Positions 33,307 to 37,972 of a DNA stretch of 48,802 nucleotides are shown one piece after another. The position numbers were made by a program, and so were the translations under genes. The DNA comes from Anaerolinea sp. (lineage in GTDB: Bacteria; Chloroflexota; Anaerolineae; Anaerolineales; Villigracilaceae), in NCBI GenBank assembly GCA_020723805.1, contig DYID01000021.1, positions 17,538-66,339 of the forward strand, given 5' to 3'. Below the pieces are notes generated by a model. That model was not told where the DNA came from. It searched no databases and saw only the letters and a program-made list of their open reading frames with translations. How positions within the stretch are numbered: position 1 is the first letter of the stretch; every line of letters starts with the position of its first letter.

Positions 33307-34479
33307 ATGAACAAGAAGACAGTTAGAGACATTGACCTGAAAGGCAAGCGCGTCTTTATGCGCGTGGATTTCAACGTCCCGATGGCGGACGGCAAGGTCA
33401 CCGACGACAAGCGCATCCGCGCCGCCCTGCCGACCATCAAGTACTGCCTCGAGCAGGGCGCTTCGCTTCTGCTTGCCAGCCACCTGGGACGCCCGAAGGG
33501 TGGTCCCGACCCGGAATTCAGCCTGCGCCCGGCAGCCGAGGTCTTATCTTCGCTGTTGGGGATTCCCGTCAAAATGGCGCCCGATTGTGTCGGTCCTGAA
33601 GTGGAAGCGATGGCGAAGGCGCTCCAGCCCGGCGAAGTCCTGATGCTGGAAAACACCCGCTTCCATCCGGGCGAGGAAAAGAACGATCCGGAATTGGCGA
33701 GGCAAATGGCGGCGCTGGCAGACGTTTATGTGAACGATGCGTTCGGGTCGGCGCACCGCGCTCACGCCTCCACGGAGGGGATCGCCCGCTTCCTCCCGGC
33801 GGTTGCCGGCTTCCTGATGGAGCAGGAACTCGAGTATCTTGGTAAAGCCGTCGCCAATCCCGAACATCCCTATATTGCTATTCTGGGCGGGGCAAAAATC
33901 AGCGACAAGATTCTGGTCGTCGAAACCCTGCTCTCGAAATGCGACAAACTCATCATCGGCGGCGGCATGGCGAATACCTTCCTTGCCGCGAAAGGTCTCA
34001 ACATGCAGGACAGCCTGGTCGAAGAGGCTTCGCTTGAAACTGCCAAATCCATCATGACAAAGTCTGGTGACAAACTCATCCTGCCGGTGGATGCGGTTGT
34101 GGCGGATAAGTTCGAAGCCGATGCCAACACCCAAATCGTGGATGTGGACAAAATCCCCGCCGGCTGGCGCATGTTGGATGTGGGACCGAAGACGCTCGAA
34201 TTGTACAAGCAGGCATTGAGCGGCGCCAAACTCATCGTGTGGAACGGACCCGTGGGCGTGTTCGAGATGCCCAAGTTTGCCGAAGGGACGTTTGCCCTCG
34301 CCCGCATGTTGGCGGACTCCGGCGCGGTGACCGTCATCGGCGGCGGCGACTCGGCGAGCGCGGTCAAGAAAGCAGGCGTCGCCAAGCAGATGACCCACGT
34401 CTCCACGGGCGGCGGCGCTTCGCTCGAATTTTTGGAAGGCAAGGAACTGCCCGGCGTGGCGGCGCTGCTGGATAAGTAG
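33307..34479 (+). CDS. pgk: Phosphoglycerate kinase
   Basis: The 390-aa protein has the family start [20 protein letters not shown], substrate-binding RVDFNVP and ASHLGRP, hinge and ATP-binding [14 protein letters not shown], and the nucleotide-binding VGVFE and GGGDSASAV near the C-terminus. It transfers phosphate from 1,3-bisphosphoglycerate to ADP. An AGGTGG ribosome site stands before the ATG. The 151-nt gap to gap holds a miniature element. Confidence 0.97.
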
Positions 34480-34483
34480 TCTC

Positions 34484-34572
34484 GTAGTCGGATAGTCTGA
34501 TAGTTTGATAGTCGGATAGTCTGATAGTTTGATAGTCAGATGGTTGTGGACCGTGGAAAATACACGGTCCAC
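34484..34572. repeat. 24-bp tandem repeat plus a 10-bp hairpin between pgk and tpiA
   Basis: GATAGTCTGATAGTTTGATAGTC-type units occur twice in full (34490-34513 and 34514-34537) with partial copies at both sides. A perfect hairpin GTGGACCGTG/CACGGTCCAC (34546-34572) follows without a T-run. It may attenuate or process the pgk-tpiA message. Confidence 0.75.
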
Positions 34573-34634
34573 AATTTGTATCCGCGATGGACGCGGGTGA
34601 TTACGGCTATAATCGAAAAAAACTTGGAGGAATT

Positions 34635-35393
34635 ATGCGTACCCCCTTCGTTGCCGGAAACTGGAAGATGAACAAAACCGCCGCCGAGGCGCGCGAACTG
34701 GTCTCGCAGTTGCTGGGTCCGTTGATGGACATTGCCGGCGTGGAAAAAGTCCTTTGCCCGCCGTTCACGTCGCTCTTCGCCGTCTCGTCCATGCTGGAGG
34801 GGAGCGGCATCGGTCTCGGCGCGCAGAACATGCACTGGGAGGAAAAAGGCGCTTTCACCGGCGAAGTCGCGCCGGGCATGGTCAAGGAAGTGTGCGGCTA
34901 TGTCATCATTGGTCACTCGGAACGGCGCACCTATTTTGGCGAAACCGACGCGACGGTCAACAAGAAACTACATGCCGCGCTCAAATACGACCTGACGCCC
35001 ATCGTCTGCGTGGGGGAGACGCTGGAAGAGTACGAAGCGGGGCGGACCTCGGAAGTGGTCCTGCGCCAAATCACTTTGGGCTTCGCTGACGTTGCTCCTG
35101 CCAGCGCGGCGCGCATCGTGGTCGCGTATGAGCCGGTCTGGGCAATCGGCACGGGAAAAGCCTCCAGCGGAGAAAATGCCAATTTCGTGCATGGACAGGT
35201 CATTCGTCCAGCCCTGAGCCGTTTGTTCGGCGAGGCAACCGCGCAGGCGATTCGCATCCTGTACGGCGGGTCGGTGACGGCGGCGAACGCATCCGAATTC
35301 TTTCAGCAACCTGAAATTGACGGGGCATTGGTCGGCGGAGCCAGCCTGAAGGCAAATGAGTTTGTCTCCATTACGAAGGCGGCTGTAAAGTAG
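34635..35393 (+). CDS. tpiA: Triose-phosphate isomerase
   Basis: From ATG 34635 (GGAGG site) the protein is 252 aa. AGNWKMNKT carries the catalytic Lys, GHSERR the catalytic His, and AYEPVWAIGTGK the catalytic Glu with the flexible loop 6. YGGSVTAANA binds phosphate. It interconverts dihydroxyacetone and glyceraldehyde phosphates, completing the local glycolytic set. Confidence 0.97.
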   Translation: MRTPFVAGNWKMNKTAAEARELVSQLLGPLMDIAGVEKVLCPPFTSLFAVSSMLEGSGIGLGAQNMHWEEKGAFTGEVAPGMVKEVCGYVIIGHSERRTYFGETDATVNKKLHAALKYDLTPIVCVGETLEEYEAGRTSEVVLRQITLGFADVAPASAARIVVAYEPVWAIGTGKASSGENANFVHGQVIRPALSRLFGEATAQAIRILYGGSVTAANASEFFQQPEIDGALVGGASLKANEFVSITKAAVK

Positions 35394-35422
35394 GCAGGCG
35401 CCGTCCCCTGGTGTTTTCGCCC

Positions 35423-36178
35423 ATGAATCAACTTGCCGGCTTTTTCTGGTTTGCCGCCATGCTCGTGCCGCTGGTGTTTCTCCAGCGGCTTTTGCATCGT
35501 GAGATACAGGCGGTGTTTTTGCTTCTCACCCGCGACGCACGCCTGACCATCGTGTTCTTCCAAATCCTTTTTCTACCCGGCGTTTTTTTGCACGAGTTGA
35601 GCCATTTCCTGACGGCGAAACTCCTGCGCGTGCGGACGGGCGGGTTTTCCGTCATCCCGCGCGCCCTGCCAGACGGACGCCTGCAACTCGGCTATGTGGA
35701 AACCGCCAAATCGGACATCGTGCGCGATTCGCTGATTGGCGCCGCGCCGTTGATTTTCGGGACGCTGTTCGTCGCTTATGTCGCCGTCTATCGTTTGGAA
35801 ATGCGCGTGTTGTGGGATACCCTTCGCAACGGGCAGTTCGATCTATTCTGGCTGGGGCTCCGGCTTCTGCCAACGGTGAAGGATTTTTACTTGTGGTTCT
35901 ACCTGGCGTTTGCCGTGAGTAGTACGATGATGCCCTCTGAGTCAGACCGCCACGCCTGGCTGGAGTTGTTGATTTCGGTGGGGATTCTCTTTGCTTTTGC
36001 CCTGCTGGTCGGCGCGGGTCCGTGGATGCTGGAGAACGTCGCGCCGCGGGTGAGCGGCTTTCTCAGTTCGGTGGCGGTGATTTTGGGGTTGAGCTCGGTC
36101 TTTCATGCCCTCCTGCTCCTGCCAACGCTTCTCGTTCATAAAGCATTGACGCGCCTCACCGGCATGGATGTGGCTTGA
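35423..36178 (+). CDS. Integral membrane protein with HExxH (M50-like) motif
   Basis: From ATG 35423 the protein is about 251 aa with six to seven hydrophobic helices. Early in helix 2 it carries FLHELSHFLTA, an HExxH zinc motif as in site-2 proteases and other membrane metallopeptidases. A second acidic zinc ligand is not obvious, so activity is uncertain. It lies 29 nt after tpiA on the same strand, which may mean shared transcription. The start at 35411 (GTG) is an alternative. Confidence 0.72.
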   Translation: MNQLAGFFWFAAMLVPLVFLQRLLHREIQAVFLLLTRDARLTIVFFQILFLPGVFLHELSHFLTAKLLRVRTGGFSVIPRALPDGRLQLGYVETAKSDIVRDSLIGAAPLIFGTLFVAYVAVYRLEMRVLWDTLRNGQFDLFWLGLRLLPTVKDFYLWFYLAFAVSSTMMPSESDRHAWLELLISVGILFAFALLVGAGPWMLENVAPRVSGFLSSVAVILGLSSVFHALLLLPTLLVHKALTRLTGMDVA

Positions 36179-36186
36179 ATTTCAGC

Positions 36187-36915
36187 CTATCCGCTTTTCC
36201 ACCTTGTAATCAACATCTTCACCCGCACGCGGACGCGGCTGTCGGCGTCGCCCAGCGCCCATGCAGAACGCGCGGCGCGCCGCGTCTCTTCGTCGAGACC
36301 GATGAAGTTTTCCCATTCATCGTCAATCCATTTTTCCATATCGCTGGCGGTATCCCAGACGTAATGCAGAGGGAAGAACGTCTCCTTTTCGCGTGTGAAC
36401 CAGCCGTTGGTTTCCGCTTGTGTCATGGCGCGATTCGCGGCGGCGTCGTCTTCCAAGCCCAGCGGTAGGTCGGTGACGCGCCCCACTTCACGCGTTTCGC
36501 GGGCAGAGAAGACCTCGACGCTCCAACGGTCACTGAGCGGGCGCAGGTCAATGAGAATGCCTTGCAGTGCGAGGACGCGGTAAATTTCACCCAGGGCATG
36601 AACCATGCCCGCATGGGCAATTCATCAGAGCGACCAGGCAAGGATGGCGGTGTCGAAAGTTTCTTTACGAAAAGGGAGGTGTTCGGATTGGGCGTTGACG
36701 AAGTGGACTTTCTTTTCCAGGTGATAGGGGCGGTCAACCCGGGCGACGCGCAAGGCGTTTCGGTCAGGGTCCAGCCCAACGGTCAAGGAGGAGGCGGAAG
36801 CGTAACGCCAGGTCAGGCGTCCCTCGCCGCATCCAATCTCCAGGACGCGCCTGCCGGTAAAGTCGGCGAATTGATGCAGATGCCTGGTCTCGTTGCCTTC
36901 GGGGTCTTTGAGCAT
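36187..36915 (-). CDS. Class I SAM-dependent methyltransferase with two adjacent in-frame TGA codons (candidate selenoprotein)
   Basis: One frame runs from ATG 36915 to the stop at 36187, 242 codons, broken only by TGA TGA at 36627-36622 (residues 97 and 98). Before it: SAM motif VLEIGCGEGRLTWRYA, then VGLDPD and FDTAILAWSL. After it, in the same frame: GMVHALGEIYRVLALQGILIDLRP, shown here only in part, the usual next helix and strand of the fold. Both halves are therefore parts of one normal-length enzyme. Homologues, as I recall, tend to have Cys-Cys after WSL, which TGA-TGA would replace as Sec-Sec. A 7-bp hairpin with loop GUU follows. The gene starts 1 nt after the adh stop with an AGGAGA site. 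Alternative: nonsense pseudogene or two-cistron split. Confidence 0.7.
36594..36610 (-). promoter_or_regulatory. bSECIS-like hairpin after the tandem TGA
   Basis: In the mRNA GGGCAUG and CAUGCCC pair perfectly around loop GUU. The stem starts 11 nt and the loop 18 nt after the second UGA (21 after the first). Bacterial selenocysteine elements have a short stem, a G in the first loop positions and a similar distance. The sequence overlaps a second possible hairpin, CCAUGC/GCAUGG. Function is untested. Confidence 0.4.
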
Positions 36916-36916
36916 T

Positions 36917-37972
36917 TCAATCTCCTATCGTTAAAACCTTTGCTCCACGAATTTTTCCCTGTTTCAATTCCAGCAGCGCGATGTTGGCGTCTTTCAATTC
37001 GTACTCTTGAAACTCCGGCTTGATGCCTGCCTCTGCCGCCAACTGCAAAAACTCACGCACGTCGGCGCGGGTCACGTTTGCCACGCTCTTGATTTCCTTT
37101 TCCATCCACAACTGCGACGGATAATCCAATCTGGATAAAACCTCCTTATCGGACTCTTCCTTGCGGATGGCGTTGACCACCAGCCTGCCGCCGGGACTCA
37201 AGACCTTCAGCGCCTCATTCACTGGACCCCAAACCGGCGTGGTGTCAATGACCGCATCCAACCCCTCGAGCGGACTCTGGTCAATGGCGCCCGCCCATGT
37301 CGCCCCCAGCGAGAGGGCGAACTCGCGCTCGGCGGGATTTCTGCTGAAGACAAAAATTTTCGCGTTCGGAAACTTGTGCCTTGCCATCTTCAAAACAAGA
37401 TGGTTCGACCCGCCGAAGCCCATCAAGCCGAGATTTTGCCCGTCCTGAATGTTGCTCAAACGCAGAGAGCGGTAGCCGATGGCGCCCGCGCACAACAGCG
37501 GCGCGGCTTCCGAGTCGCTGAACGCATCGGGGATGGGGTGGACAAACTCCGCGCGGACCTTCATGTATTCGGCATAGCCGCCGTCCACGTCGCGCCCGGT
37601 GGCTTTGAACTCCGCGCACAGGTTTTCGTTCCCTGCCAGGCAGTGATGACATTTTCCGCAAGCCGAGGCGATCCATGCCACGCCCACGCGCTGACCGGTA
37701 GTAACGACTTTAGTCGGCGTAGTTGTTGTGCGCCGGCTAAAGTCGGCACTACGCTCAATAATCCCCACCACCTGATGCCCAAGTACCACCGGCAGGCGCG
37801 GAGGGGGAGTCCGCCCTTCGATTTCGTCCAATTCCGTGTGACAGACCCCGCAGCGCGTGACGCGAATCAACACTTCACCCTCGTCCAGTTTCGGTTCGGC
37901 AATATCTTCCAGCGAAAGCGGCTTTGGATTGTCTTTGAGAAGTGTAATCTCACGCAGAAGCATGGCTCTCAT
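36917..37972 (-). CDS. Zinc-dependent alcohol dehydrogenase
   Basis: The 351-aa medium-chain dehydrogenase has catalytic zinc ligands C41 (RCGVCHTE) and H66 (LGHQVVG), a four-Cys structural zinc site (C105, C108, C111, C119 in CGKCHHCLAGNENLC) and a Rossmann segment GLMGFGGSNHLV. It oxidises alcohols or reduces aldehydes with NAD(P). Residues 74-92 (SADFSRRTTTTPTKVV) are encoded by a 55-bp palindrome of intergenic type, where homologues have a short VGEGV-like turn. It precedes the methyltransferase by 1 nt. A start three codons later is also possible. Confidence 0.9.
   Translation of the reverse strand: MRAMLLREITLLKDNPKPLSLEDIAEPKLDEGEVLIRVTRCGVCHTELDEIEGRTPPPRLPVVLGHQVVGIIERSADFSRRTTTTPTKVVTTGQRVGVAWIASACGKCHHCLAGNENLCAEFKATGRDVDGGYAEYMKVRAEFVHPIPDAFSDSEAAPLLCAGAIGYRSLRLSNIQDGQNLGLMGFGGSNHLVLKMARHKFPNAKIFVFSRNPAEREFALSLGATWAGAIDQSPLEGLDAVIDTTPVWGPVNEALKVLSPGGRLVVNAIRKEESDKEVLSRLDYPSQLWMEKEIKSVANVTRADVREFLQLAAEAGIKPEFQEYELKDANIALLELKQGKIRGAKVLTIGD
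37698..37752. repeat. 55-bp palindromic repeat inside the alcohol dehydrogenase gene
   Basis: Arms GTAGTAACGACTTTAGTCGG (37698 on, 22 nt) and CGCCGGCTAAAGTCGGCACT (37731 on, 22 nt) pair imperfectly around an 11-nt loop. GACTTTAGTC-type repeats are also seen in intergenic sites here (44362-44404 and in the MITE-like elements). The length and position keep the reading frame open. Confidence 0.85.

What the first reader, a model, noticed from the sequence alone, without database searches (positions are those of the whole stretch)
36187..36915. Methyltransferase with tandem in-frame TGA codons: candidate Sec-Sec selenoprotein
Two adjacent TGA codons (36627-36622) interrupt a frame that otherwise runs 242 codons with methyltransferase motifs on both sides. 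The frame is the same before and after, so an indel does not explain it. The flanks WSL and GMVHAL fit a continuous fold. A perfect 7-bp hairpin with loop GUU lies at a bSECIS-like distance (36594-36610). As I recall, related enzymes have Cys-Cys here. Two Sec in a row would be very unusual. A double stop in a decaying gene, or a split pair of cistrons restarting at ATG 36606, remain possible.
Basis: partly seen in the sequence, partly recalled or inferred. Interest (0 to 1): 0.85.

Follow-up and report, generated by a model that had tools for sequence, protein, structure and literature searches.

The report
Bacterial methyltransferases with paired selenocysteines
A gene that looks interrupted by two stop codons in a row is in fact one of a conserved group of bacterial methyltransferase genes in which both codons are almost certainly read as the selenium amino acid selenocysteine, side by side at the active site.

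Summary
The frame 36915-36187 (- strand) is a class I SAM-dependent methyltransferase with TGA-TGA at codons 97-98. It is not decay: of 89 family sites read in Chloroflexota genomes (three damaged or cut copies aside), 70 are TGA-TGA (UU), 17 TGA-Cys, 2 Cys-TGA, none Cys-Cys; supported branches force at least 9 label changes. One hairpin lies at a fixed distance; 79 of 79 genes tested meet the published bacterial SECIS criteria, and in 76 genes its stem is better paired than any of 2000 synonymous resamplings (6.64 vs 4.23, maximum 4.62). The host genome has tRNA-Sec, selA, selB and a Sec-containing selD. The second Sec aligns with TleD His157, of a His-Tyr pair that in related enzymes lies near the SAM methyl. 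No NCBIfam row shown reached its cut-off, and the 2026 catalogue's table lists no UU motif; the only published consecutive Sec-Sec I found is algal PDI_e. One in-frame bacterial SECIS serving two successive UGAs would be new. Substrate unknown; a soft metal(loid) or chalcogen acceptor is my guess.

The parts
36187..36915 (-). Tandem-Sec class I SAM-dependent methyltransferase gene (242 codons including two TGA, then TAG)
   Evidence: 49-member alignment; model pLDDT 96.3
36625..36627 (-). TGA codon 97, read as Sec (first of the pair)
   Evidence: TGA in 87 of 89 read family sites, TGT in the other 2
36622..36624 (-). TGA codon 98, read as Sec (second of the pair); aligns with TleD His157
   Evidence: TGA in 72 of 89 read family sites, TGC or TGT in 17; alignment, numbering
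36594..36610 (-). bSECIS hairpin GGGCAUG-GUU-CAUGCCC, 11 nt after the second TGA, inside the coding frame (codes G-M-V-H-A)
   Evidence: published criteria
36917..37972 (-). Zinc-type alcohol dehydrogenase directly upstream on the same strand (probable operon partner in this clade only)
   Evidence: its sequence cluster occurs in 9 of 55 neighbourhoods

Best explanation
The gene is an intact selenoprotein gene. SelB with Sec-tRNA-Sec reads both UGA codons as selenocysteine, directed by one bacterial SECIS hairpin that lies 11 nt after the second UGA and 14 nt after the first. The product is a class I SAM-dependent methyltransferase in which the residue pair shortly after strand beta-4, His-His or Cys-His type in the ordinary relatives seen, is Sec-Sec. 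Shown by comparison: the continuous frame, Sec/Cys exchange, hairpin, machinery and placement in the active-site region. Inferred: that both UGAs of one message are decoded by the same hairpin, and that the two selenolates hold or activate a soft acceptor (a metal, metalloid, or sulfur/selenium compound) next to the SAM methyl group so that it is methylated (this function part about 0.4).
For: Site conserved with TGA as the only stop: 79 read genes give UU 61, UC 16, CU 2 and 10 more give 9 UU and 1 UC; the stops columns show TGA or none. On a tree of 76 members the labels need 13 changes, and starred branches force at least 9 for UU and for UC. Hairpin: 79 of 79 have a G in the first two loop positions, a helix of at least 4 contiguous pairs and MFE <= -7.5 kcal/mol for the 42 nt after the pair, the criteria quoted in PMC13188914. 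In 76 genes Watson-Crick pairs average 6.64 of 7, against 4.23 (sd 0.118, maximum 4.62) in 2000 synonymous resamplings. Stem pairs differ on both sides: 19/33 is G-C in 56 and A-U in 19 of 76; 22/30 A-U in 72, G-C in 4; 20/32 G-C in 75, C-G in 1. dN/dS is about 0.15 upstream and 0.07-0.19 downstream in the same frame. The UC and CU genes are natural single-site controls: the same hairpin serves a UGA at either spacing. Sec machinery. Position: U98 aligns with TleD His157; His157-Tyr21' helps build the TleD active site (PMC8159823, passages), and a His-Tyr dyad lies near the SAM methyl in FPPMT and in a Plasmodium enzyme (PMC7862628, passages).
Against: No protein-level evidence of Sec exists here. 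One small hairpin serving two consecutive UGAs has no bacterial precedent that I found, so termination at the pair could be frequent. In at least three genes (L034, L039, L116) the minimum-energy fold of the 42 nt is a different hairpin, and the 19-nt element folded alone ranges from a median of -11.1 to -2.3 kcal/mol at the weakest. The innermost stem pair forms in 55 of 76. selB was not found over the cut-off in 3 of 46 TGA-bearing genomes (G044, G095, G286, which are 88, 95 and 84% complete). Three further copies are damaged or cut at the site. PMC7862628 says that in TleD the His and Tyr maintain local fold and are not part of the cyclization cascade. No substrate evidence: neighbours are not conserved beyond clades.
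Confidence: 0.88

Rival explanations
1. Decaying gene or assembly error: the double TGA is a real stop pair in a pseudogene.
For: Two stops in a row look like decay when seen alone. Single copies elsewhere are damaged: a one-base frameshift just before the pair in G027, a deletion over the site in G775.
Against: The same codon pair recurs in many independent genomes; purifying selection on both sides; TGA only, no TAA or TAG; covarying hairpin.
Confidence: 0.01
2. Two cistrons: translation stops at the TGAs and restarts at ATG 36606, giving a split methyltransferase.
For: An ATG lies 15 nt after the second TGA and is ATG in 70 of 76 genes.
Against: That ATG is part of the hairpin stem and is replaced by GTC (3), ATC, GCC or ACC (1 each) in 6 of 76 genes, none of them ATG, GTG or TTG. 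The split would cut the fold just after beta-4. TGA alternates with Cys codons at each position, which makes part or all of the pair a sense codon in relatives.
Confidence: 0.02
3. Sec-Sec is made, but the pair is a redox switch (diselenide/selenylsulfide) that turns an ordinary methyltransferase on and off, and does not bind the acceptor.
For: Vicinal Sec/Cys pairs can oxidise (general chemistry, recalled). Among columns with at least 10 Cys in 49 members, only C29 of the GCG SAM motif (39 of 49) accompanies the pair, so it could react only with itself or an outside partner. UU, UC and CU interchange.
Against: The pair lies in the acceptor region near the SAM methyl by alignment. CC is not seen although disulfides would also switch.
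Confidence: 0.3
4. Only one of the two UGAs is decoded efficiently as Sec in vivo, and the full-length product is a minor or mixed species.
For: One hairpin must serve two successive codons; the published bacterial model describes an element after a Sec-UGA codon and does not treat a pair (PMC13188914 section 5).
Against: UU is the commonest state (70 of 89) and has persisted across several classes of the phylum, which would be odd if it wasted most translation.
Confidence: 0.2
5. UGA is read as tryptophan or another residue by suppression, not as Sec.
For: None specific.
Against: The alternating residue is only Cys in the 79 genes and the 10; Sec machinery and a bSECIS are present.
Confidence: 0.01

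Closest known systems
Algal PDI_e selenoprotein (GUGUU motif; PMC7539508)
   Same: Two consecutive Sec residues; the authors call it the first such selenoprotein (passages read).
   Different: Eukaryotic thioredoxin-fold protein; the authors found no bacterial homologue. Here: bacterial methyltransferase, with the SECIS inside the frame directly after the pair.
Selenoprotein methyltransferases of NCBIfam and the 2026 catalogue: ArsM (UxxG), MduS (NF045649), methyltransferase/UXPK-star (NF047649), ArsM-AhpD (NF041537) and ArsM-DUF2284 (NF041536) fusions
   Same: SAM-dependent methyltransferase domain with Sec.
   Different: The window protein scores 27, 23.9, 24.5 and 22.7 bits against the four NF models in that order (cut-offs 380, 460, 510, 575); the best of six members, L049, reaches 49.2, 63.1, 65.6 and 52.9. 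Their listed Sec motifs are CxxU or UxxG, not UU.
Eukaryotic algal/diatom 'SAM-dependent methyltransferase' selenoprotein (PMC2375036, passages; listed in PMC7435645, passages)
   Same: A methyltransferase listed as a selenoprotein.
   Different: No sequence was at hand, so the relation was not tested; the passages mention no Sec-Sec pair.
Vicinal CU selenoproteins: HgcA, SaoL, SaoC, MbdU, KCU-star (catalogue Table 1)
   Same: Adjacent Cys-Sec pair; several belong to mercury, organometal or metal-binding systems by their catalogue names.
   Different: Other protein families; in the listed motif one of the two adjacent residues is Sec, not both.
TleD, RebM, AtmM and YcgJ methyltransferases (PDB 5gm1, 3bus, 6uv6, 1xxl)
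   Same: Class I fold; the Sec pair aligns with C156-H157 of TleD.
   Different: TleD has Cys-His there, and His157 pairs with a tyrosine; different or unknown substrates.

Membership tests
Bacterial selenoprotein gene | In-frame UGA that replaces Cys in homologues | tested here: met
   UU 61, UC 16, CU 2 of 79 read; 9 UU and 1 UC more
[quoted passage not shown]
   79 of 79 for loop G, stem and MFE of the 42 nt; loop 18 and 21 nt after the two UGAs in the window; in at least three genes the minimum-energy fold is another hairpin; criteria from PMC13188914
Bacterial selenoprotein gene | tRNA-Sec, selA, selB, selD in the genome | tested here: met
   for the own genome; selB in 43 of 46 TGA-bearing genomes
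Bacterial selenoprotein gene | Selenium in the protein | not testable with these tools
   needs 75Se labelling or mass spectrometry
Class I SAM-dependent methyltransferase | Fold and SAM motif (GxGxG, acidic residue after beta-2) | tested here: met
   G28, G30, G32 invariant and D49 nearly so; Pfam; Z 18.1 to 1xxl, rmsd 5.5 over 205 residues, and 18.0 to 3dh0, rmsd 2.5 over 171
Class I SAM-dependent methyltransferase | Methyl transfer activity | not testable with these tools
   no assay
NCBIfam MduS (NF045649) | Score over the curated cut-off of 380 bits | tested here: not met
   27 bits for the window protein; 49.2 at best among six members
Arsenite methyltransferase (NF008823) | Score over the curated cut-off of 263 bits | tested here: not met
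   not among the 25 rows shown for the window protein (27 matched); best of six members scanned 61.6 bits
CpaM (NF043040), the best NCBIfam match | Score over the curated cut-off of 180 bits | tested here: not met
   48.3 bits for the window protein; 69.7 at best among six members
PDI_e | Thioredoxin-like fold with GUGUU | tested here: not met
   methyltransferase fold; SLUUI motif

The most novel reading that the evidence does not exclude
A Sec-dependent family of methyltransferases, never seen with Cys-Cys, in which one in-frame bacterial SECIS directs two successive Sec insertions, and the resulting vicinal selenolate pair holds a soft metal(loid) or chalcogen against the SAM methyl: a methylation chemistry not described before.
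Probability: 0.35. Interest if true: 0.93.

Novelty: new variant of a known kind. Interest (0 to 1): 0.86.

Why it matters
It would be a bacterial protein family with two selenocysteines side by side, made with a single small hairpin. This raises a direct question about translation: how SelB bound to one hairpin serves two codons in a row when the ribosome has advanced three bases. The family supplies natural single-site controls (Sec-Cys and Cys-Sec) for that test. No Cys-Cys member was found, so search methods that require Cys homologues could miss it; the deep-Sep authors name this limit themselves (PMC12013277, passages). It also puts selenium in the active-site region of a methyltransferase and so hints at unexplored methylation chemistry in a phylum common in anaerobic habitats (habitat recalled).

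Tried and rejected
Decay, restart and Trp-suppression ideas: rejected on conservation, covariation and Cys exchange. Search for Cys-Cys homologues: none at E <= 1e-20 with the profile in class searches of 396, 110 and 47 genomes (overlapping sets), nor at 1e-10 with the single protein in 400. Only part of the first-look candidates per genome were scored (at most 6, 58), so a divergent Cys-Cys copy could have been missed. Rows dropped from the tally: G027 (UU present, frameshift just before it), G775 (site deleted), G776 (contig end); four more distant enzymes without Cys at the site (L117, L118, L119, L150); and an ordinary methyltransferase beside the family gene in L046/L094. Rfam: no match in 36150-36950 up to E 1. 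Neighbourhood: recurrent partners lie inside clades only (representatives scanned: Zn-ADH, DUF1801, peptidase C69, Bmp-type, SH3, amidase, class I lysyl-tRNA synthetase, GH57), so no functional context emerged. Viral contigs: exact site pattern 0 hits; 8 weak relatives not pursued. Plasmids: 23 weak matches, none covering 80% of the query. Independent-pair sign tests on two covarying stem pairs had too few pairs to reach 0.05 (4 same way, 0 other way, 1 no change; and 2 of 2). One search asked for the wrong RNA family (RNase P) and was not used. The model was not available as coordinates, so the Sec-SAM distance was not measured. Other phyla could not be searched systematically.

Full report
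Observation. The - strand frame 36915-36187 is 242 codons plus TAG, with TGA TGA at codons 97-98 (36627-36622) and the same frame on both sides. Pfam methyltransferase models run across the site (Methyltransf_25 residues 24-119, 6.6e-15). The hairpin at 36610-36594 is GGGCAUG-GUU-CAUGCCC, starting 11 nt after the second TGA.

Relatives. The species-genome collection gave one relative (Anaerolineales UBA5797, 79% identity) with the same SL**IAHEGM. A search of 400 genomes of the phylum gave matches in 48 at E <= 1e-10, 46 of them with one or two in-frame TGA. A profile search of 396 genomes of the class gave 47 at E <= 1e-20, each with TGA. By handle numbers (G000-G737) these two searches cover 738 genomes, of which 74 carry a TGA-bearing member. 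Reading the site gave 79 genes, UBA5797 included: 61 UU, 16 UC, 2 CU, 0 CC. Two further class searches covered 110 genomes (27 with a match) and 47 genomes (3 with a match, known already). From nine new genomes and the second copy in G207 I read 10 more sites: 9 UU and 1 UC. That makes 70 UU, 17 UC and 2 CU in 89. Not counted: a UU copy with a one-base frameshift just before the pair (G027), a copy with the site deleted (G775) and one cut by the contig end (G776). Family-profile matches without TGA were three weak, ordinary methyltransferases with LHH-, LEH- or VHH-type residues and one in G045 with SSLASQ. In the 76 genes tabulated the codons are TGA or TGT first and TGA, TGC or TGT second; the other 13 show TGA first and TGA or TGC second.

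Evolution of the pair. On a maximum-likelihood tree of 76 members the UU/UC/CU labels need 13 changes; shuffled labels average 16.6. Well-supported branches force at least 9 changes for UU and for UC. So Sec and Cys have exchanged repeatedly, mostly at the second position, yet every member read keeps at least one Sec. dN/dS between the window gene and two near relatives is 0.152 and 0.149 upstream of the pair, and 0.185 and 0.069 downstream.

The hairpin. In a gap-free alignment from the first codon of the pair, the stem is at positions 18-24 / 28-34 and the loop is GTN in 78 of 79. All 79 meet the loop, stem and energy criteria printed for bacterial SECIS in PMC13188914 (section 5 read); the loop is 18 and 21 nt after the two UGAs. 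In 76 genes the seven pairs average 6.64 Watson-Crick, against 4.23 (sd 0.118, maximum 4.62) when codons are resampled synonymously with the family's own codon usage; all six outer pairs form in 70 of 76, against at most 8 in the resamplings. Sliding the partners by other offsets gives 0.99-2.91 pairs. Pairs differ on both sides between members: 19/33 G-C in 56, A-U in 19, A-C in 1 (8 pair changes on the tree); 22/30 A-U 72, G-C 4; 23/29 U-A 73, C-G 2, U-G 1; 20/32 G-C 75, C-G 1. The Gly/Ser codon difference goes with a silent Ala difference (GGC with GCC, AGC with GCT), which protein constraint alone does not explain. Against: the sign tests on independent pairs have too few pairs to reach significance; the innermost pair forms in 55 of 76; in at least three genes the minimum-energy fold of the 42 nt is another hairpin (L034, L039, L116); and the element folded alone is as weak as -2.3 kcal/mol in the worst case (median -11.1). 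From memory, the E. coli fdhF element also has an 11-nt spacing, a 17-nt minihelix and a GGUC loop; this was not tested here.

Machinery. The own genome (97.2% complete) has tRNA-Sec (71.5 bits; anticodon TCA), selB, selA and selD over their cut-offs; selD itself carries Sec in GUASK. Of the 46 TGA-bearing genomes, 43 have selB by my reading; G044, G095 and G286 do not. Over all 400 genomes 307 have selB over the cut-off, so selB alone discriminates only weakly.

Fold and position. The model (pLDDT 96.3) is a class I methyltransferase; the pair (97-98) lies in a short turn, three residues after the strand 87-93. Best solved matches are general class I methyltransferases (1xxl Z 18.1, rmsd 5.5, 205 residues; 3dh0 Z 18.0, rmsd 2.5, 171 residues). 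A profile search aligns SLUUI with TleD SLCHM, C156-H157. His157 hydrogen-bonds Tyr21' of a neighbouring chain at the TleD active site (PMC8159823, passages). A His-Tyr dyad lies near the reactive SAM methyl in FPPMT, and a similar one is reported for a Plasmodium enzyme; in TleD the two residues are said to matter for local fold, not for cyclization (PMC7862628, passages). That the FPPMT dyad His is the same alignment position as TleD His157 follows that paper's comparison; I did not align FPPMT. So the Sec pair is very probably at the acceptor site; the distance was not measured. Among columns with at least 10 Cys, the pair is accompanied only by C29 of the GCG motif (39 of 49).

What it does. 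Committed reading: a methyltransferase for a soft acceptor held or activated by the two selenolates. Support is indirect: placement, absence of Cys-Cys, and the fact that several vicinal CU motifs in the catalogue belong to mercury, organometal or metal-binding selenoproteins by name (HgcA, SaoL, SaoC, MbdU), though others do not (KCU-star, an iron-sulfur protein). I put this at about 0.4, with a redox switch at 0.3. Neighbourhoods give no help: in the window a zinc alcohol dehydrogenase precedes the gene with almost no gap, and its cluster occurs in 9 of 55 neighbourhoods.

Novelty. No NCBIfam row shown reaches its cut-off in six members scanned (25 rows shown per protein at most). The catalogue PMC13188914 (section 7 parts 1-2 of 3, which hold Table 1, and section 5 read; otherwise passages) lists no UU motif; neither does Table 1 of PMC9312934 (section read). 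Literature searches turned up consecutive Sec-Sec in a natural protein only in algal PDI_e (PMC7539508, passages); I read passages, not all listed papers. Haft and Tolstoy 2025 was not held, so a mention there or in subscription papers is possible.

Noticed in passing
L019 (own genome C26:48744-49676): SelD of the host is itself a selenoprotein, with Sec in GUASK, so Sec insertion does not rest on this gene alone.
   Followed up: yes
L051, L036/L070, L043/L066, L045/L163, L055/L056: Five genomes (G055, G382, G087, G207, G369) carry two copies of the family, in G087 and G382 with different Sec patterns, so paralogues may have separate roles. The two G207 copies both sit at contig ends and may be one locus split or duplicated by assembly.
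   Followed up: partly
L153, L151, L152: Damaged or cut copies: a one-base frameshift just before the pair in G027, a deletion across the site in G775, a contig end in G776. They may be assembly faults or real loss.
   Followed up: partly
L131:5068-5538 and its sequence cluster: A protein of a DUF1801 cluster (one member scanned) lies within about 100 nt upstream of the methyltransferase in 7 of the 8 neighbourhoods where the cluster occurs, a possible partner of unknown role.
   Followed up: partly
L109, L110, L112, L114, L115: In these five neighbourhoods the gene lies between a protein of the cluster whose scanned member has an SH3 domain and one of the cluster whose scanned member is Bmp-type (ABC substrate-binding), both on the same strand.
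   Followed up: partly
L060, L062, L056 upstream: In three neighbourhoods the gene follows, on the same strand, genes of the clusters of class I lysyl-tRNA synthetase and GH57 (one member of each scanned).
   Followed up: no
window 33307-36178: Phosphoglycerate kinase, triosephosphate isomerase and a weak M50-peptidase-like gene lie in a row on the + strand, converging on the methyltransferase.
   Followed up: no
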